Positions 2,623-63,932 of a stretch of 64,000 nt of DNA are shown one piece after another. Each line of letters begins with the position of its first letter. The first letter of the stretch is position 1. Under the pieces are notes generated by a model that had not been told where the DNA came from, made no database searches, and saw only the letters and a list, made by a program, of their open reading frames with translations. The position numbers and the translations under genes are program-made. Source of the DNA: Mactromeris polynyma (taxonomy: Eukaryota > Mollusca > Bivalvia > Venerida > Mactridae); the NCBI GenBank assembly GCA_032209605.1, contig JASFXZ010000013.1, positions 8,145,401 through 8,209,400 on the forward strand, given 5' to 3'.

Positions 2623-2755
2623 GGTTCAATTCCTGTCTACAATACAACAGAATTGAAAACAAAGAGACCTGAGATAGAGAGGGTGATCTATAAAGCCGTT
2701 CGTGAGAGATTGGGCGGGAAATGTTGTCGTCAAGATTGTAGCGAGTACAAGGAAG
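2623..2755 (+). CDS. SPFH-like gene, first visible exon
   Basis: Encodes GSIPVYNTTELKTKRPEIER through CCRQDCSEYKE. Acceptor is TTATTTAAG just before 2623, which has a weak pyrimidine tract. Donor is GGTATG at 2756, phase 1. No in-frame start: it is an internal exon. Confidence 0.6.
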
Positions 2756-5102
2756 GTATGTGAATATTTCCTGTGATCAAAGTTGTTTTTTATTGGATTT
2801 GCTCCATTACTGGACATATATTTCATGATAACTGTGCAATTTCTTCTCTAATTCAGTCTGCACTATTGGTTGTTTACCTCGAGATAAATATACCATTTCT
2901 TCTCTAATTCAGTCTGCACTATTGGTTGTTTACCTCGAGATAAATATACCATTTCTTCTCTAATTCAGTCTGCACTTTTGGTTGTTTACCTCGAGATAAA
3001 TATACCATTTATTCTCTAATTCAGTCTGCACTATTGGTTGTTTACCTCGAGATAAATATACCATTTATTCTCTAATTCAGTCTGCACTATTGGTTGTTTA
3101 CCTCGAGATAAATATACCATTTATTCTCTAATTCAGTCTGCACTATTGGTTGTTTACCTCGAGATAAATATACCATTTATTCTTTAATTCAGTCTGCACT
3201 ATTGGTTGTTTACCTTGAGATAAATATACCATTTATTCTTTAATTCAGTCTGCACTATTGGTTGTTTACCTTGAGACATATATATCATTTATTCTCTAAT
3301 TCAGTCTGCACTATTGGTGGTTTACCTTGAGATAAATATACCATTTATTCTCTAATTCAGCCTGTGCTGTGGGATGTATACCTCGAGACAGGTGTACCGA
3401 CGATGATAAAGGTCTATATGTTGATGTGAAGTTCTTCCAGTTGACTGACATTACTATTACTAATGATGTGATGGAAAGATTTATGGAGAATTTGCTTTTG
3501 GTGGAGAAGAACCTCCGTGAACAACACGTTCAGAATGCTACCATCATCAGAAAAGATACTGCTAAAAAGGTCAGTGCATTTATTAGTAATGATTTTCTTC
3601 TTTTTTTTCAGACTGCTTATATTATATGAACTGGGTTGATTTTTGTGACCAGTCTATATTTATTGTCTGGTTCTGTGGCGAACTCCACGCAGCGGTTATC
3701 TTCCCTTGCAGTACAGCAATAACCATTGCCTTCACAAAAGGCACGATAATGGTTGGTTGGACAAAATGCATTGTATATATTTTCAGTCTAAAATGCTGAC
3801 CATTACTATCACATATTACTTGACACGGATCTGTCATTTAAATGGTAGTAGATAATTTATTTTTAATTTATTTTTAGCTCACCTGAGCACTTCAAGTTGA
3901 GCTATTGGGACCACCCTATGTTCATCGTCCTTCGTCAAAAATTTAGATTGTTAACACTCTAGAGGTAACTGATCAGCATGAAACTTGGACAGAATGTTTG
4001 TCTTAATAAAATCTAGGCCAAGTTCGAAACTATGTCATCTGGGGTCACTAGGTCAAATTATAGGAAAACCTTGTTAACACTCCAGAGGTCACATTTTTGA
4101 CTTGATTTATGTGAGACATTGTCAGAATGTTTATCACAATGAAATCTAGACCAAGATCGAAACTGTGTCATTTGGGGTCAAAAACTAAGTCACTAGGTCA
4201 AATTATAGTAAAACCTTGTTAACACCCCAGAGGTCACATTTTTGACTTGATTAATGTGAGACATGGTCAGAATGTTTGTGTCAATGAAATCTAGACCAAG
4301 TTCAAAACCGGGTCATCTGGGGTAAAAAACTAGGTCACAAGCTTAAATTATAGTAAAACCTTGTGAACTTTCCAGAGGTTACATTTTTTACCTTATTTAC
4401 ATGAGAATTGGTCAAAATGTTTGCCTAAGTAAGATCTAGGCAAAGAATGAAACTGGGTCATCTGAGGTCAAACATTGGTCACAGGATCAGATGATTGAAA
4501 ATCGTAGTGGGTTCTCAGGAGGCTTAATTTTCTACCGGATCTACATAAAACGTGATCAGAATGTTTCTCTTAATAAAATTCAAGTCCAATGTGGTACATG
4601 GTCAAAAAAGTAGGTCACAAGGTCAAATCATTGAAAATCCTCTTGGACTCTCTTGAAGCCAACAATGTTCTCAGGTGAGCGATATAGGGCCACCATGGCC
4701 CTCTTGTTATGGTCATGCTAGTATTAACTATTAACATGCTGCAAAGAAATCCCAATTTTAAGTAGGGGCCATTTTCATGGGTAGGTAGTGTTATGCTTAA
4801 CAAATATTTTTTAATTGTGGCCTTGTGTTGCTCTACAGGTCGCTGATATCCAGAACGAAGCGAAGGAAATCCGGGAATCTGCTGAATCGGAATCACGTAC
4901 GATATATATCGTATCCCAAGCGGAATATACGAGCACGATAGAGAAAGCGAGAAGTACCGGATTGAAGCAGCTTTACACCAATCTGAACATCAATACACAG
5001 GAACAGAAGAACAGCTTCGATTATCTGCGAACGTTGAGAGGTCTCGATAACGTTCATCTTACTGTGGACTTCCAGCAGCGTATTGCCGGCTCTCTCAAAT
5101 AG
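2623..5102 (+). CDS. SPFH/Band 7-domain-like protein, C-terminal part (three exons)
   Basis: Three joined exons, 2623-2755, 3361-3569 and 4839-5102, give 201 residues ending in TAG. They keep one frame across both GT-AG introns (phase 1, then phase 0). The middle exon reads KGLYVDVKFFQLTDITITND, like the end of an SPFH core where a strand precedes the helix. The last exon is a long charged helix rich in A, E, K and R (residues about 110-165), then DYLRTLRGLDNVHLTVDF, the usual hydrophobic close of prohibitin/stomatin-like proteins. Such proteins form membrane-associated oligomeric rings. There is a Cys-rich insert (GGKCCRQDCSEYKEACAVGC) where exons 1 and 2 join, so disulphide or metal binding is possible. 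Upstream exons with any signal or membrane segment lie outside the window. The family call is by pattern only, and the gene looks intact. Confidence 0.7.
2837..3360 (+). repeat. 56-bp minisatellite made of the splice acceptor and start of the next exon
   Basis: The string CTCTAATTCAG or CTTTAATTCAG ends at 2856, 2912, 2968 and every 56 bp up to 3360, the true acceptor: ten acceptor-like sites without any indel. After each AG the sequence continues TCTGCACTATTGG...TACCTCGAGA, matching the real exon start CCTGTGCTGTGGG...TACCTCGAGA. Read in the exon frame, the decoys give VCTIGCLPRD against the exon's ACAVGCIPRD. Any decoy used as acceptor reaches TGA (copies with CCTTGAG) or TAA (CTCTAA two units on), so only the last site is productive. 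Confidence 0.92.
3361..3569 (+). CDS. SPFH-like gene, middle exon
   Basis: Starts at the last of ten tandem acceptor-like sites and ends AAAAAG|GTCAGT, phase 0. Encodes ACAVGCIPRDRC, the strand-like YVDVKFFQLTDITI, then the start of the charged helix ending RKDTAKK. Confidence 0.8.
3872..4708. mobile_element. AGCTCACCTGAG dispersed repeat (non-coding)
   Basis: Opens AGCTCACCTGAGCACTT and closes TCTCAGGTGAGCGATATAGG then CCACCATGGCCCTCTTGTT, so the ends form inverted repeats (CTCACCTGAG/CTCAGGTGAG). The interior is about five diverged copies of a roughly 120-145-bp module containing TGAAACTTGG...CAGAATGTTT and GGTCACTAGGTCAAAT. No ORF. It lies in the last intron of the SPFH-like gene. Related copies or fragments occur at 39.1-40.1, 53.9-54.1 and 55.25-55.32 kb. 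Confidence 0.8.
4839..5102 (+). CDS. SPFH-like gene, terminal exon
   Basis: Acceptor TTGTGTTGCTCTACAG just before 4839. Encodes VADIQNEAKEIRESAESESR, a long amphipathic helix, and ends RIAGSLK then TAG at 5100-5102. A possible poly(A) signal ATTAAA follows at 5221. Confidence 0.85.
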   Translation, partial: VADIQNEAKEIRESAESESRTIYIVSQAEYTSTIEKARSTGLKQLYTNLNINTQEQKNSFDYLRTLRGLDNVHLTVDFQQRIAGSLK

Positions 5103-17069: not shown

Positions 17070-17612
17070 CTAATTTATATGGTTGCAGTAAATACATTGC
17101 CATTTCCATTGCTTAATAGTTCGATGTTCAGTTGTTCTACCAACACATTTTTGGTGGAACCAACTTTTACATTTCCTAAATCCACATCATATCATATTGT
17201 CTACAAAATCGGGCATACTACAAACACACCATGTTTGTAGTTTAATTAATTTTGGGATCCCGCTAAATGCCGTAGACCGACTTCGACTAATATTTTCCAT
17301 AGGAAATGATGTAATTTTTCCATTTTCTAAACACATAACTAAATTTTCCCTCATATCATTCATTATGAAATGACTAATGAAATTGATATTCAAAGGATTT
17401 TTGCAAAATTCGACAGCACGTGCAATAGCAAACAGACCACAATCGTAAGAATTTGGCTGCTGCTGAACTCTTGGTATCTTAATCGTTAACCTATTAGAAT
17501 CACTTTTGTAAATCTGACTTAGTTGAATCTGTATATTTAATTTTAAGCATTTCGAATTTTCACTTAAACTATCTAGATAATATACAGTGGATGGTTCTTT
17601 GTCTGTTGGTTG
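17070..17612 (-). pseudogene. Ulp1-like (C48) cysteine peptidase C-terminus plus PHD finger, disrupted
   Basis: Read on the minus strand in one frame from 17612. EPSTVYYLDSLSENSKCLKL carries the active-site-region Asp, and VQQQPNSYDCGLFAIARAVE has the Gln...Asp-Cys-Gly layout of the nucleophile loop. Next comes a linker with MRENLVMCLENG. The end is a PHD-type finger, WCVCSMPDFVDNMI then CGFRKCKSWFHQKC then WQCIYCNH, with Cys/His spacing complete but one TGA between DNMI and CGFRKC. The part expected to hold the catalytic His lies upstream of a TGA at 17613-17615 and probable frameshift, and was not recovered. Ulp1-like plus PHD proteins are, as I recall, multicopy and transposon-associated in marine invertebrates. 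I infer a mobile-element remnant and not a host SUMO protease. Confidence 0.7.
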
Positions 17613-18271: not shown

Positions 18272-22654
<4,383 letters not shown>

Positions 22655-23130: not shown

Positions 23131-25953
23131 AAGCTGAGCTAAACACAAAATGCAGCATTTTACCGTGAGCAGCGAGCTGAGCTAAACACAAAATGCAGCA
23201 TTTTACCGTGAGCAGCGAGCTGAGCTAAACACAAAATGCAGCATTTTACCGTGAGCAGCGAGCTGAGCTAAACACAAAATGCAGCATTTTACCGTGAGCA
23301 GCGAGCTGAGCTAAACACAAAAAGCAGCATTTTACCGGGAGCAGCGAGCTGAGCTAAACACAAAATGCAGCATTTTACCGGGAGCAGCGAGCTGAGCTAA
23401 ACACAAAAAGCAGCATTTTACCGGGAGCAGCGAGCTGAGCTAAACACAAAATGCAGCATTTTACCGGGAGCAGCGAGCTGAGCTAAACACAAAATGCAGC
23501 ATTTTACCGGGAGCAGCGAGCTGAGCTAAACACAAAATGCAGCATTTTACCACGAGCAGCGAGCTGAGCTAAACACAAAATGCAGCATTTTACCGGGAGC
23601 AGCGAGCTGAGCTAAACACAAAATGCAGCATTTTACCGCGAGCAGCGAGCTGAGCTAAACACAAAATGCAGCATTTTACCGCGAGCAGCGAGCTGAGCTA
23701 AACACAAAATGCAGCATTTTACCACGAGCAGCGAGCTGAGCTAAACACAAAATGCAGCATTTTACCGGGAGCAGCGAGCTGAGCTAAACACAAAATGCAG
23801 CATTTTACCGCGAGCAGCGAGCTGAGCTAAACACAAAATGCAGCATTTTACCGCGAGCAGCGAGCTGAGCTAAACACAAAATGCAGCATTTTACCGGGAG
23901 CAGCGAGCTGAGCTAAACAGAAAATGCAGCATTTTACCGCGTGTAGCGAGCTGAGCTAAACACAAAATGCAGCATTTTACCGCGTGTAGCGAGCTGAGCT
24001 AAACACAAAATGCAGCATTTTACCGCGTGCAGCTGGCTGAGCTAAACACAAAATGCAGCATTTTACCACGAGCAGCGAGCTGAGCTAAACACAAAATACA
24101 GCATTTTACCGCGTGTAGCGAGCTGAGCTAAACAGAAAATGCAGCATTTTACCGCGTGTAGCGAGCTGAGCTAAACACAAAATACAGCATTTTACCGCGT
24201 GTAGCGAGCTGAGCTAAACACAAAATACAGCATTTTACCGCGTGTAGCGAGCTGAGCTAAACAGAAAATGCAGCATTTTACCGCGTGTAGCGAGCTGAGC
24301 TAAACACAAAATGCAGCATTTTACCGGGAGCAGCGAGCTGAGCTAAACACAAAAAGCAGCATTTTACCGCGTGCAGCGAGCTGAGCTAAACACAAAATGC
24401 AGCATTTTACCGCGTGCAGCGAGCTGAGCTAAACACAAAATGCAGCATTTTACCGGGAGCAGCTGGCTGAGCTAAACACAAAATACAGCATTTTACCGCG
24501 TGCAGCTGGCTGAGCTAAACACAAAATACAGCATTTTACCGCGTGCAGCTGGCTGAGATAAACACAAAATGCAGCATTTTACCGCGTGCAGCGTTATGAG
24601 CTAAACACAAAATACAGCATTTTACCGCGTGCAGCTGGCTGAGCTAAACACAAAATGCAGCATTTTACCACGAGCAGCGAGCTGAGCTAAACACAAAATA
24701 CAGCATTTTACCGCGTGCAGCTGGCTGAGATAAACACAAAATGCAGCATTTTACCGCGTGCAGCGTTATGAGCTAAACACAAAATACAGCATTTTACCGC
24801 GTGCAGCTGGCTGAGCTAAACACAAAATGCAGCATTTTACCACGAGCAGCGAGCTGAGCTAAACACAAAATGCAGCATTTTACCGCGTGCAGCTGGCTGA
24901 GCTAAACACAAAATGCAGCATTTTACCACGAGCAGCGAGCTGAGCTAAACACAAAATACAGCATTTTACCGCGTGCAGCTGGCTGAGCTAAACACAAAAT
25001 GCAGCATTTTACCACGAGCAGCGAGCTGAGCTAAACACAAAATGCAGCATTTTACCACGTGCAGCTGGCTGAGCTAAACACAAAATGCAGCATTTTACCA
25101 CGTGCAGCTGGCTGAGCTAAACACAAAATGCAGCATTTTACCACGTGCAGCTGGCTGAGCTAAACACAAAATGCAGCATTTTACCACGTGCAGCTGGCTG
25201 AGCTAAACACAAAATGCAGCATTTTACCACGTGCAGCTGGCTGAGCTAAACACAAAATGCAGCATTTTACCACGTGCAGCTGGCTGAGCTAAACACAAAA
25301 TGCAGCATTTTACCACGTGCAGCTGGCTGAGCTAAACACAAAATGCAGCATTTTACCACGTGCAGCTGGCTGAGCTAAACACAAAATGCAGCATTTTACC
25401 ACGAGCAGCGAGCTGAGCTAAACACAAAATACAGCATTTTACCGCGTGCAGCTGGCTGAGCTAAACACAAAATGCAGCATTTTACCACGAGCAGCGAGCT
25501 GAGCTAAACACAAAATGCAGCATTTTACCACGTGCAGCTGGCTGAGCTAAACACAAAATGCAGCATTTTACCACGTGCAGCTGGCTGAGCTAAACACAAA
25601 ATGCAGCATTTTACCACGTGCAGCTGGCTGAGCTAAACACAAAATGCAGCATTTTACCACGTGCAGCTGGCTGAGCTAAACACAAAATGCAGCATTTTAC
25701 CACGTGCAGCTGGCTGAGCTAAACACAAAATGCAGCATTTTACCACGAGCAGCGAGCTGAGCTAAACACAAAATACAGCATTTTACCGCGTGCAGCTGGC
25801 TGAGCTAAACACAAAATGCAGCATTTTACCACGAGCAGCGAGCTGACCTTAACACAAAATACAGCATTTTACCGCGTGCAGCTGGCTGAGCTAAACACAA
25901 AATACAATATTTTACCACGAGCAGCGAGCTGAGCTAAACACAAAATACAGCAT
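23131..25953. repeat. 43-bp minisatellite, about 65 copies, several subfamilies
   Basis: Unit GAGCTGAGCTAAACACAAAA+TGCAGCATTTTACCGCGAGCAGC. Subfamilies are set by the last 12 bases: GAGCAGCGAGC on the left, GTGTAGCGAGC in the middle, GTGCAGCTGGC on the right. Right-hand units carry CACGTGCAGCTG, i.e. two E-box hexamers in a row. Alternation of GCTGGC and GCGAGC units near 24640-25060 forms a dimeric higher-order pattern. Confidence 0.96.
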
Positions 25954-26204
25954 TTGTTCCTTTGCCACCGAAGAACACGGATTAAAATCGAAACATGAAA
26001 AAATCGTTTTCTTATGAACATTAGTTCCTTTGCTGGATATCAGCCATATGTAAATACACAAACATCGTATAAACTCTATGAAACTAGCAAGGCGTGCAAA
26101 TTGATAGATGAATCATCATTTTATTGTGATGTTAAGGTACATTTTGTATACCTTATCTACATATACACTGTATATAAAACACATATTTACTTTATTCAAA
26201 TTTT

Positions 26205-28675: not shown

Positions 28676-31600
28676 TCAGTACGCAAGTTTAACCAATGAG
28701 GTTGATAACGAGAAGAATCTCAATGCGTCCCCTTCAACTTCAGTTGCTAAATTTAGCAGATAGTCACATTGCTCTGTAGGGGAGAGAGCCGCGAACGAGT
28801 TGAACTCAGAATGACCATGTGTACCAGTGAGAGTATCCCACACTAGATCACGATTGGAATTATTAACACGACAGAAGCATATCAAATGTACAACAATATT
28901 ATCTGTTGCATCATTACATTTTTTACAAATACAGGTAAAGTTGTTGATAAAACGTGCAACCATTGACATTAATTTAAAGCACAGGGCGGAGATCCGAGGA
29001 TTATGCCTTGACAGTGACCACAGCCTACAAGGTTTGTCATCCTTCAGTATATTCGATAAGATCGGTGACCGACACACTACATGTTCGAACATTATAGTTC
29101 TCTCACTTTGGATGACTCTGTTATTGATGATGTTCTTCCATGTTGAATTAGACGGGAAGTGTCCGTTCATCAGGTAAACATGCAGAATATCAATTAGACG
29201 ATACTTTTGTAGAATTCTGTAAATATCTGGAATAAATCCATTATGCTGATTGTCATAATTGATGTAATGTGTAAGTCTGTTATTGAAAACGTATTTGGCA
29301 TCGAAGCTGTTTGATAGTCCACATAATTGTCCGAGAAACTGCAGTTTTTTATGTTCAATGACGGTTTCCATGGAGACAACATCTAAAGCACACAATGAGA
29401 AATCGGTTGAAGTTCCTGTATAGAATGATTGCATTCTTTTAACACAAAAACGGTGAGACCGTTCAAGTTTCAGTAAGTCAGTCGAAGTGATCGTTGTCCA
29501 TAACTCGCATCCGTATAAAGCTTTTGGTAACACCACGGCGTTGTATATAGTTCTTGAAGTCACAGGATTAAGTACATGGGGACTTATTCCACTATTGCTT
29601 ATACTCAAATACGTTCCTCTGAGTTTTGTTCAGGCACTATTAATCAACTGTTTTGTTGTTAAGAACTGGTCACAGATAACACCTAGATGAGTATAACTCG
29701 AAGATTCATTGATGACTTGATCTCCAAGTTTAAACACTGTATTGTGGACTCTGCTTCTCTGTTCATTGAATACAACCACCGAACACTTGTCTGTATTGTA
29801 ACTATATCGCCATTGTTTTGAATAGTTATCACATATTTTGAGCATTTTGTTTAGACCGTTCACAGAATAGGAAATGAGAACCATGTCGTCGGCCACAGTT
29901 GGAGAGCTAAGTTTAGAATCATATAAGCAGATACCTGCACCAATGTGTTCCAGTTCATTGATAAGTCCATTAATATAAAGCAAGTATAACAGTGGAGAAG
30001 TTATACCGCCTTGTCTAGTGCCTTGTAGGATAGTAAACCAGTTTGAATGTTTTCCTTGGTACCTAACACAACTTGTCATGTTCGTGTAAAGTGCATTAAA
30101 GGCTAAAAAGGTCGTAGAGTCAATGTTTGTTTCCGTTAGCAGCTTATATAATATTCCCTGATGCCACACAGTGTCAAACGCCTTACGACCGTCCATAAAA
30201 CAAACGTACAGCTTCGAGTTGAACTCACGTGAAAAATGTATGCACTCTCGAAGTATAAATAAAGTCATCATATATGATAACCCATCTTGAAAGCCACCTT
30301 GCTGTTTGTTAATGCATGAATTAATTTGGTTTTTACATCGTTTCAGTAAAACAGCTTCATATATTTTTAGGAGTACGGAGGTTAAGGTAATAGCACGGTA
30401 ATTGTCTGGATTATACGTTCTTTTGTTTCCACCTTTGTGTAATGTTATTATAACGCCTTGCTTTAAAGCACTAGGAATAGATCCCGTCCTTAACATATAA
30501 GTGAATAGGTTTGCCAAAACAGGGGACAGAGAATCTTTAGTATTGATAAGATGTTCGTACTCAATTTTATCGTACCCACTTGATTTCCTTCTCGGACAAT
30601 TTTCAATTATACTTTTCACTGTTTCAGGTAATATAATCACCGTGGGATCTGGTTGTAGTTGACTCAACATATTTTGAATTCTAAAAATCAAAGTCTCCTC
30701 CCAGTTCCCATCATATGTGCAATCATCATTCGGAGAATACAAGTTTTGAAAGTAATTACACCATCCTTCAGTTATTCCCATCCGATCCCGTACAACAGCA
30801 CCAGTAAATTTAATCCTATCACTTTGTTTATTTTGCTTCCCTTTCCTTCGAGAATTAATTATTTGTCAGAATTTCCGGGAATCAATTTCGGCTGATCGAT
30901 CAATTTCAGAATTGATTTTTCTAAGATAGTCATTCACACACAGTCGATGTAGACGCCTGAACTCACATTTTGCTTGTTTGTACGACTGATACACTGGATG
31001 CTGATTTCCTCGAGGTCTACCATGCATACACCATGTATTCCTGAATATTTTCATATTATTATGAGCAGCTGATAGGTCACTATTCCAATATGGTTTTAAA
31101 TAGTCTAGATATCTCTTCCTGAGCAAAGATGCATTTGAACATGATGTAATCTTTTCAACTAACAGATTATAAGAATTGACAATGGCAGATGAGTCTAATT
31201 CACACTGTGATAATTCAGCTAGCTTTCCGTCAGACATTAACTTATAATTGTACTCTTCAATTTGCTCATTGGTACACTTAACCCAGTTTACATATACTAT
31301 ATCATTATCAGATCTATCAACGACACTAACAGGTAGATTTAAGGTACATAATACAGGTCTATGACAAGAAACATTCAAACAATCATCATCAAGAATCTCA
31401 CAGTAAAGTACACAATCAGACAATTCACACGGGATACAAATAAAATCTATCAACGTGCTACATTAACCGTCATATGAAACATATGATTTCTGTGCACCTA
31501 CACAATTAGGTGTAACATTTACAGGGAAAATATTGGTATTAGTAAAGAATTTATACAATGATACATCACGAGAACGTTTGCTATTGACATCGAATTTTGC

Positions 31601-32167
31601 ATTAAAGTCACCCAAGAACACAACAGTACCATTTTGTACGTACATATTGCAAATATCATACATTTTATCTATGTATTCCCTGTAACTATCAATACAGTGG
31701 TTAACACTTGGTAAATATACCTGAAATATATACATAAAAGTGTTAGGTGCAGTCTGAAATTGAACACCAGCTATTCTGTCGTCGTCAAAACTCAATGGAA
31801 CAACATTATAGTCATGTTGTTTGTGCCACATTAGAGCCACTCCACCCTTGCCGACCCTCCGGTTACTCGGAAGATAAAGTGATTTATCACAGATAACATG
31901 CGCACGATAGTCTGATGTTAATGTGTCTATAAAGTGCATATTTTGTGGCTTCAGGTAATGTTCAGAAATGCCACAGAAATCGACATTCTTTTTCTTCAAT
32001 GTGTCACAGAGATAGGATGAACTAGATGTTAACCCAGTTGCATTCCATGTCATCATATTTAATGCCATAATAGTGATTGGTATGAAACAAAATGTCATGT
32101 ACGGTAATAAGAGCACCATACTATATCTCTTAATGAATGAATTAGTCAATAGGTACATAATCTTCAT
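28676..32167 (-). pseudogene. LINE ORF2: endonuclease-reverse transcriptase with three in-frame stops
   Basis: One frame of 1,163 codons from ATG 32167. It has an APE endonuclease (MMTWNATGLTSSSSYLCDTL, GISEHYL, LGDFNAKFD), an RT (NYRAITLTSVLLKIYE, FMDGRKAFDTVWH, GTRQGGITSPLLYLLYINGL, VADDMVLIS) and a C-terminal Cys/His motif (CICKKCNDATDNIVVHLICF). Stops fall near 31463 (TAA after YVSYDG), 30866 (TGA after DSRKF) and 29630 (TGA after LINSA). The two TGA positions look like lost Trp. The endonuclease SDH motif reads SCH (NVSCHRPV), so the catalytic Asp is also gone. No frameshift was found. RT active-site Asp residues are intact. Confidence 0.88.
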
Positions 32168-33287
32168 GGGGTAAGTTATAACGGTTCACACTGATACAGC
32201 CGAACTGATTGTGTTCATTATAGTTTTCACGAGACTTGTAGCTATCGTACCGTCTGTCATCACGTGACCTCACTTTATAGTTTCGACTGCTGTCTCGAGT
32301 CATGCGAGTTGGAAGATCACGAGCCATTTTGTGATTTCGATTCTCGTCGTTTTGTCTCCGAAGTATTTCTCTAGATACCTACGGTCGGCAGATGATGCCA
32401 TGAGGCCAGAAACCGTCTTGTAGCATAGACTCCGCCATATCGTCACATTCAACGTTAAGGCGTATAATAACTCTATCTCTAGAGCGTTTGACAGGAAAAA
32501 CTCGGACAAACGTAACTTTGGGTCCTTGACTGTTGACATGATGAGCAATTTCTCCGATCGTTATTGTATTAGTATAACCACTGATAAAGAACCGTCTAGT
32601 TTTAGGTCGTGTGATACGTTCAAACCCTTCTTCGCCTTTATCTTGATGACGCGGTGTTATGAGCACTGGAATAGGACGAATACAGTCATCAGTTCGGTGC
32701 ATATCTTTTTGGCTTATATTTTCAGTGGTAATTCTCTCAAATGAGCAGTTCGTTGATTCAATATCACCACTTTGTTGTATTTCGGAAAATGCAGGGTTTG
32801 GATACTCGTTGATCATGTCCGTTTCGGAGCGCAGGTCTTTGATTTTCGTTACAATCTCTGATCTTTCCGAGTTGTAAGTTTCAACACAGAATGTATCACC
32901 TAGATGATATACAGACACACGTCTTGAACTATCAATAAAATCAAGAAAGACAACACCATTAAACAGTGCAAGAAAGACAACACCATCAAACAGTGCAAGA
33001 AAGACAACACCATCAAACAGTGCAAGAAAGACAACACCATCAAACAGTGCAAGAAAGACAACACCATCAAACAGTGCAAGAAAGACAACACCATCAAACA
33101 GTGCAAGAAAGGCAACACCATCAAACAGTGCAAGAAAGACAACACCATCAAACAGTGCAAGAAAGACAACACCATCAAACAGTGCAAGAAAGACAACACC
33201 ATCAAACAGTGCAAGAAAGACAACACCATCAAACAGTGCAAGAAAGACAACACCATCAAACAGTTGTTGGCAAACTGTCGCTAACAT
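32142..33287 (-). pseudogene. LINE ORF1 with one stop and an N-terminal minisatellite fusion
   Basis: The C-terminal half has an RRM-like/nucleic-acid-binding look: RRFFISGYTNTITIGEIAHH, KVTFVRVFPVKRSRDRVIIR and DGFWPHGIICRP, then TAG at 32379-32381 where W is expected, then VSREILRRQN and a basic, Arg/Tyr-rich tail to the stop at 32142. The N-terminal 110 codons are LALFDGVVF repeats from the 30-bp array and are not expected in the family. Its end overlaps the ORF2 start by 26 bases in another frame, suggesting coupled translation in the active ancestor. Confidence 0.75.
32946..33264. repeat. 30-bp minisatellite inside the LINE 5' part, about 10.6 copies
   Basis: Unit AGTGCAAGAAAGACAACACC+ATCAAAC, beginning in the LINE sequence TCAATAAAATCAAGAAAGAC. 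Period 30 keeps ORF1 open and also gives unrelated open frames in other frames. Confidence 0.93.

Positions 33288-36978: not shown

Positions 36979-63932
<26,954 letters not shown>

What the first reader, a model, noticed from the sequence alone, without database searches (positions are those of the whole stretch)
2837..3360. Minisatellite made of ten copies of a splice acceptor
A 56-bp unit repeated without indels contains the 3' splice site and the exon's first ~30 bases; the decoys even translate as a diverged version of the exon start (VCTIGCLPRD against ACAVGCIPRD). All decoys lead to early stops. With the CUL2 case, two unrelated genes in one 64-kb window show the same event, suggesting that 3' splice junctions are hot spots for tandem duplication here.
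Basis: partly seen in the sequence, partly recalled or inferred. Interest (0 to 1): 0.78.

Follow-up and report, generated by a model that had tools for sequence, protein, structure and literature searches.

The report
Tandem-repeated splice acceptors in a clam
In a clam-like genome, the end of an intron and the start of the next exon have been copied in tandem nine extra times, leaving a row of look-alike splice sites in front of the real one; the same kind of structure is known from amphioxus, and here it looks like tolerated repeat growth rather than a special hot spot.

Summary
Window 2839-3388 is a 56-bp minisatellite: nine decoys plus the true copy of the 3' splice site and first 38 bases of exon 5 of an intact Band-7 gene, probably from a Mactra-like bivalve. 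All nine decoys would give early stops. The true copy equals the decoy consensus at 18 of 18 intron bases but differs at 11 of 38 exon bases, where decoys have lost conserved residues: they are drifted copies of this exon. An inverted duplicate of the region carries 12 acceptors instead of 10. Two more such arrays exist: exon 2 of the same gene (49 bp, upstream of the window) and CUL2 exon 2 (74 bp), on an apparent U12 AT-AC intron. Amphioxus has the same structures, named 'mirages'. The hot-spot claim is not supported: arrays cover 3 of 22 mapped acceptors and 0 of 22 donors, against 7.4 of each expected by random placement, and 0 of 33 acceptors at sampled kinase exons elsewhere. Arrays seem tolerated at acceptors and purged from coding sequence. 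How the real acceptor wins over nine equal ones is untested. A new member of a known kind, moderately interesting.

The parts
2623..2755 (+). exon 4 of the Band-7 gene; donor GTATGT follows at 2756
   Evidence: tblastn with P0001; splice sites; open six-exon CDS of 336 aa
2826..2832 (+). TGATAAC, branch-point-like heptamer; its A at 2831 is 25 nt from the first decoy AG and 529 nt from the true AG
   Evidence: read by eye; consensus recalled, not scored
2839..3388 (+). 56-bp minisatellite: 18 intron bases plus 38 exon bases per unit; nine decoys plus the true copy (whose last unit reaches 3398)
   Evidence: TRF, register alignment
2839..3342 (+). the nine decoy acceptor units (AG ending 2856, 2912, 2968, 3024, 3080, 3136, 3192, 3248, 3304)
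3361..3569 (+). true exon 5; donor GTCAGT follows
   Evidence: homology to P0001, splice sites, intact CDS
4839..5102 (+). exon 6, final coding exon with stop
36991..37109 (+). coding part of CUL2 exon 1, followed by ATATCCTTT (U12 AT-AC type donor by recalled consensus)
   Evidence: tblastn with human CUL2, sequence, donor position
37418..37634 (+). 74-bp array, three copies of the CUL2 exon-2 acceptor, each with the TTTAAC...GTAC|AG end
   Evidence: TRF, sequence in both duplicates
37604..37706 (+). true CUL2 exon 2

Best explanation
This is a 'mirage': a minisatellite that arose when a segment spanning an intron-exon boundary (18 intron bases plus the first 38 bases of exon 5) was duplicated in tandem and then grew by the ordinary copy-number mutation that affects minisatellites at this array-rich locus. 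The distal copy stayed the real acceptor and kept its coding sequence under selection. The upstream copies became intron, drifted together and lost conserved residues, while the intron half of the last unit kept exchanging with the array. The intron probably grew from about 101 nt (donor to first decoy AG) to 605 nt. The gene works because the distal acceptor, nearest the exon-5 donor, is used often enough; transcripts that use a decoy carry an early stop well upstream of a junction and should be degraded. Shown: array, polarity, stops, intact gene, copy-number difference, same structure at two other acceptors. Inferred: original intron length, exchange within the array, use of the distal acceptor, decay of mis-spliced transcripts.
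For: Array and register. True copy against decoy consensus: intron part 18 of 18 identical, exon part 27 of 38 (Fisher P = 0.011). Of 52 homologues over 250 aa, 44 share the exon's A and 0 the decoys' V at position 1; 49 share the exon's C and 0 the decoys' Y at position 12; of the six residues that differ, the exon form is the commoner at five. Intact 336-aa CDS, same length as the Mactra antiquata protein P0001, which is 88% identical over the 203-aa query; Band_7 hit. Stops in 9 of 9 decoy isoforms. The duplicate region has 11 decoys, the two extra near the 3' end of the array, although most neighbouring stretches compared are 99.6-100% identical. 22 of 47 comparable arrays differ by at least half a unit between the duplicates, so copy-number change is general. 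A paralogue with introns at corresponding places, 42-61% identical by exon, shows no array in 6.9 kb. Two further acceptor arrays. Known precedent: mirages (passages).
Against: No RNA evidence. The clearest branch-point-like sequence seen by eye is beside the first decoy, not the true acceptor, so strong use of 2856 would be expected unless units carry their own branch points or exon definition dominates. At one of the six differing residues (position 11) the decoys' K is commoner among homologues (7 of 52) than the exon's R (3 of 52). Fragments of the 56-bp array also lie in intron 3, ahead of exon 4, which simple in-place growth does not explain. The exon-2 and CUL2 arrays do not differ in copy number between the duplicates.
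Confidence: 0.75

Rival explanations
1. 3' splice junctions are mutational hot spots for tandem duplication in this genome.
For: Three acceptor arrays and no donor array among 22 acceptors and 22 donors mapped in two genes; two of them in one gene.
Against: 3 of 22 is below the 7.35 expected from random placement at this locus; 0 of 33 acceptors at sampled kinase exons elsewhere, though arrays are also rarer there (6.4% of flanks); acceptor versus donor P = 0.23; both boundary types are hit in amphioxus.
Confidence: 0.12
2. The decoys are a regulated unproductive-splicing switch: acceptor choice sets how much mRNA is destroyed, and copy number tunes it.
For: All 9 decoys give early stops well before the next junction; the decoys' intron side equals the true one apart from single-base variants in 5 of 9 copies.
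Against: The decoys' exon half has drifted and copy number differs between near-identical duplicates; the paralogue shows none; no expression data.
Confidence: 0.1
3. The repeat units come from a different, paralogous exon rather than from this one.
For: Exon half diverged at 11 of 38 sites while the intron half is identical to the decoy consensus.
Against: The DNA search listed matches only at the two copies of this locus, 6 matches from 5 candidates, a lower bound by the tool's own note; the paralogue's exon 5 starts KACPAGCKPITTC, unlike the decoys; decoys lack residues conserved in the family. More distant matches on C289 near 3.2 Mb were not examined.
Confidence: 0.04
4. Assembly artefact.
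For: The contig holds a mirrored near-identical duplicate 7.2 Mb away, which could be a retained second haplotype.
Against: Both duplicates carry the array with the same variant order but different copy number; units are not all identical; three separate cases.
Confidence: 0.03

Closest known systems
'Mirages' of amphioxus (Adh3, globins BflGb6 and BflGb9; also troponin C and PGBD5), as described in passages of PMC3087553 and PMC3902484
   Same: Minisatellite-like tandem duplications across an intron-exon boundary; copy number differs between haplotypes; units evolve in concert while the boundary copy is excluded; some hit the 3' splice site and exon start.
   Different: Bivalve, not cephalochordate; ten and twelve acceptors in the two copies (BflGb6: 6 and 3 repeat units); 11 of 38 exon positions of the true copy differ from the decoy consensus; one case sits on an apparent U12 AT-AC intron; no transcript data here, whereas RT-PCR suggests that the amphioxus genes splice regularly.
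Ordinary intronic minisatellites of the same locus
   Same: Similar periods and copy-number lability (22 of 47 comparable arrays differ between duplicates).
   Different: At the mapped junctions they do not include a splice site or exon bases.

Membership tests
[quoted passage not shown]
   18 intron plus 38 exon bases per unit, junction located by homology and splice sites
mirage (amphioxus) | Minisatellite-size unit (about 10-160 bp reported) | tested here: met
   56, 49 and 74 bp
mirage (amphioxus) | Length instability between haplotypes | tested here: inconclusive
   10 versus 12 acceptors in two copies of the locus, but whether the copies are alleles or paralogues is unresolved; the exon-2 and CUL2 arrays do not differ
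mirage (amphioxus) | Concerted evolution of units with the boundary copy excluded | tested here: met
   Decoys agree with their consensus at 51 or more of 56 positions, the true copy at 45
mirage (amphioxus) | Regular splicing despite the repeats | not testable with these tools
   No transcript data; only indirect: intact conserved CDS
mirage (amphioxus) | Somatic instability (reported for Adh3) | not testable with these tools
   Needs several tissues or long reads

The most novel reading that the evidence does not exclude
In minisatellite-rich genomes, short introns grow by multiplying their own 3' splice site, and acceptors are favoured because only the distal copy has to stay intact. Two of five introns of this one gene are 86-88% array. 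The true acceptor has thereby been moved about 500 nt from its original branch point and must win over nine near-identical upstream acceptors, so the spliceosome here would choose the last, not the first, of ten equal sites. Bivalves and amphioxus would have reached this independently.
Probability: 0.2. Interest if true: 0.65.

Novelty: new member of a known kind. Interest (0 to 1): 0.42.

Why it matters
Ten near-identical acceptors at fixed 56-nt steps, with the clearest branch-point-like sequence next to the first and the coding exon at the last, are a natural test of whether acceptor choice follows scanning from the branch point or definition from the downstream donor. The CUL2 case offers the same test for what looks like a U12-type intron. 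The finding also carries mirages from cephalochordates to a mollusc. The paper searches that I ran on mirages, minisatellites and splice sites and on bivalve or oyster minisatellites listed no title or abstract start that shows a mollusc case; this is weak evidence, because only open-licence papers are held and apart from the two mirage papers I opened none of those listed.

Tried and rejected
Hot-spot test by random rotation and by a kinase-exon sample: no excess. An earlier version of the rotation test with roughly placed CUL2 junctions gave the same picture (3 of 21 and 0 of 21). In one search one CUL2 donor (placed at 43706) is doubtful, and two stretches of human CUL2 (about residues 157-168 and 291-319) found no exon, so the 22 and 22 are the junctions mapped, not all. 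A search for second copies of each junction within 1.5 kb found 2 of 22 acceptors, 0 of 22 donors, 44 of 150 random intron points and 0 of 100 mid-exon points; it misses exon 5 because its exon half has diverged. A de novo scan for boundary arrays in 154 kb gave nothing at strict settings and at loose settings no excess over reversed sequence (3 acceptor and 3 donor candidates against 13 and 4; with slightly stricter cut-offs 3 and 2 against 3 and 1); it recovered the exon-5 array but not the known exon-2 and CUL2 arrays, so it has little power, and its best new candidate did not look like an exon. Rfam: no match in the window at gathering thresholds. One search printed wrong exon-part difference counts because of a slicing slip, and its Fisher value used 13 differences; (11 differences) are used instead. 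One search translated the CDS with two exon ends one base too long; one search is the corrected one.

The kinase sample was 36 stretches chosen by me among 137 matches listed (131 of 950 candidates scored), preferring short exon-like matches; acceptors were recognised in 33 and donors in 32. Flanks were only about 250 bp, so long arrays further off were not seen.

Full report
What is there. At 2839-3388 lies a 56-bp minisatellite of 9.8 copies without indels. Aligned on the AG it has nine decoy acceptors and the true one, ending at 3360. Each unit holds 18 intron bases and 38 bases like the start of the exon.

The gene. The downstream exon belongs to a six-exon gene with an intact 336-aa reading frame that hits Pfam Band_7. 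Its best relatives are bivalve proteins, first Mactra antiquata P0001, 88% identical over the 203-aa query and also 336 aa long. Exons 1-3 lie upstream of the window; exons 4, 5 and 6 are 2623-2755, 3361-3569 and 4839-5102. The window lies in a 793-Mb genome, contig C35. That the organism is a Mactra-like bivalve is inferred from these hits.

Polarity. The true copy equals the decoy consensus at 18 of 18 intron bases but differs at 11 of 38 exon bases (Fisher P = 0.011). Six residues differ. Among 52 homologues over 250 aa, 44 share the exon's first residue and none the decoys'; 49 share the exon's cysteine at position 12 and none the decoys' tyrosine. The exon form is the commoner at five of the six; at position 11 the decoys' K (7) is commoner than the exon's R (3). 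So the exon is the conserved form and the decoys have drifted. The intron half of the last unit has not diverged, as expected if exchange within the array reaches the acceptor and is stopped by selection at the coding bases (inference). The amphioxus globin paper reports exclusion of the boundary copy too (passages).

Consequences of mis-splicing. Exon 4 joined to any of the nine decoys meets a stop roughly 240-600 nt before the exon-5 donor; only the true acceptor is open. By the usual 50-nt rule, recalled and derived from vertebrates, all nine would be targets of nonsense-mediated decay.

Branch point. TGATAAC at 2826-2832, a good branch-point-like sequence by recalled consensus, has its A 25 nt before the first decoy AG and 529 nt before the true one (read). 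The distance from the donor to the first decoy AG is 101 nt, against 605 nt for the present intron. I infer that this was a short intron whose 3' end was multiplied. Which branch point serves the true acceptor is unknown; sites inside the units were not scored.

A second copy of the locus. The region is present again, inverted, 7.2 Mb away on the same contig (the middle's output was cut). A further match lies at 8.31/15.24 Mb, and a kinase-like pair at 7.91/15.62 Mb, not checked further, may extend it to about 0.4 Mb. It may be a second haplotype or a real duplication; this is not resolved. Near the array, three longer stretches are 99.6-99.8% identical and two short ones 100%; an intron-3 stretch is 96.3% by BLAST with only 2 mismatches and 2 gaps, while pieces further off range down to about 92%. 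The duplicate has 12 acceptors instead of 10, the two extra units lying near the 3' end. The exons are identical over the 1013 bases compared. Of 47 arrays comparable between the copies, 22 differ by at least half a unit, so such change is general here; the exon-2 and CUL2 arrays do not differ.

Other cases. Exon 2 of the same gene is preceded by a 49-bp array that repeats its acceptor and exon start, at about -5305 to -4947 relative to the window. Introns 1 and 4 of this gene are 88% and 86% array. CUL2 exon 2 has a 74-bp unit in three copies in both duplicates. There the donor reads TTCTC|ATATCCTTT and the acceptor TTTAACACTGAAGTAC|AG, which joined by hand gives RFSDVYALC, like human RFSDIYALC; by recalled consensus this is a U12-type AT-AC intron, and each unit carries its whole 3' splice site. 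Fragments of the 56-bp array also lie in intron 3, next to the 24-bp array; in the duplicate they are split by an insert of about 1.4 kb with TA at both ends and matching ends CACTGCAACTCC/GGAGTTGCAGTG (read).

Paralogue. A Band-7 paralogue on contig C289, 42-61% identical by exon (its first exon was not found), has introns at corresponding places and no TRF array in 6.9 kb. The arrays therefore seem younger than that duplication, or were lost there. Weaker matches on C289 near 3.2 Mb were not examined.

Is the acceptor a hot spot? Arrays cover 33% of the window. Of 22 mapped acceptors in the two genes, 3 lie in arrays, and of 22 donors, none; random rotation expects 7.35 and 7.34 (P of so few: 0.02 and 0.0008; acceptor against donor, Fisher P = 0.23). 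Second copies spanning the point were found for 2 of 22 acceptors, 0 of 22 donors, 44 of 150 random intron points and 0 of 100 mid-exon points. At 36 kinase exon pieces elsewhere, arrays fill 6.4% of the roughly 250-bp flanks and cover 0 of 33 recognised acceptors and 0 of 32 donors; one array, in L070, touches the test zone but stops about 11 bp short of its acceptor. Arrays thus seem to fill introns, to be excluded from exons, and to be partly tolerated at acceptors. A modest acceptor bias is not excluded.

Known kind. Minisatellite-like duplications of intron-exon boundaries are known as mirages in amphioxus; I read passages of PMC3087553 and PMC3902484. They state that both boundary types are hit, that haplotypes differ in copy number, and that RT-PCR suggests regular splicing. 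The original Adh3 paper could not be read. Of the features listed in the membership test, three are met here, one is inconclusive and two could not be tested; I file this as a new member, in a mollusc.

Noticed in passing
window 37110-37603: CUL2 intron 1 looks like a U12-type AT-AC intron (ATATCCTTT donor, ...TTTAACACTGAAGTAC end) whose whole 3' splice site is present three times; consensus recalled, not scored.
   Followed up: partly
L009 4695-5053 (about -5305 to -4947 relative to the window): 49-bp array repeating the acceptor and exon start of exon 2 of the same Band-7 gene; the intron is 88% array.
   Followed up: yes
genome C35 8145333-8145398, 15395383-15395448 and 15396873-15397037: Fragments of the 56-bp array in intron 3 beside the 24-bp array, split in the duplicate by an insert of about 1.4 kb flanked by TA with inverted matching ends.
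   Followed up: partly
contig C35, around 8.1-8.3 Mb against 15.2-15.4 Mb: Large inverted near-identical duplicate of the window region; haplotype retention or true duplication not settled.
   Followed up: partly
whole window: A third of the window is tandem arrays, and 22 of 47 comparable arrays changed copy number between the duplicates, by up to about 50 units (23132-25955 and 58935-59558).
   Followed up: partly
window 18275-19246 (-), 17190-17612 (-), 28679-32378 (-): By eye from the ORF list: alpha-tubulin-like exons, a Ulp1-like protease piece and an RTE-like retroelement.
   Followed up: no
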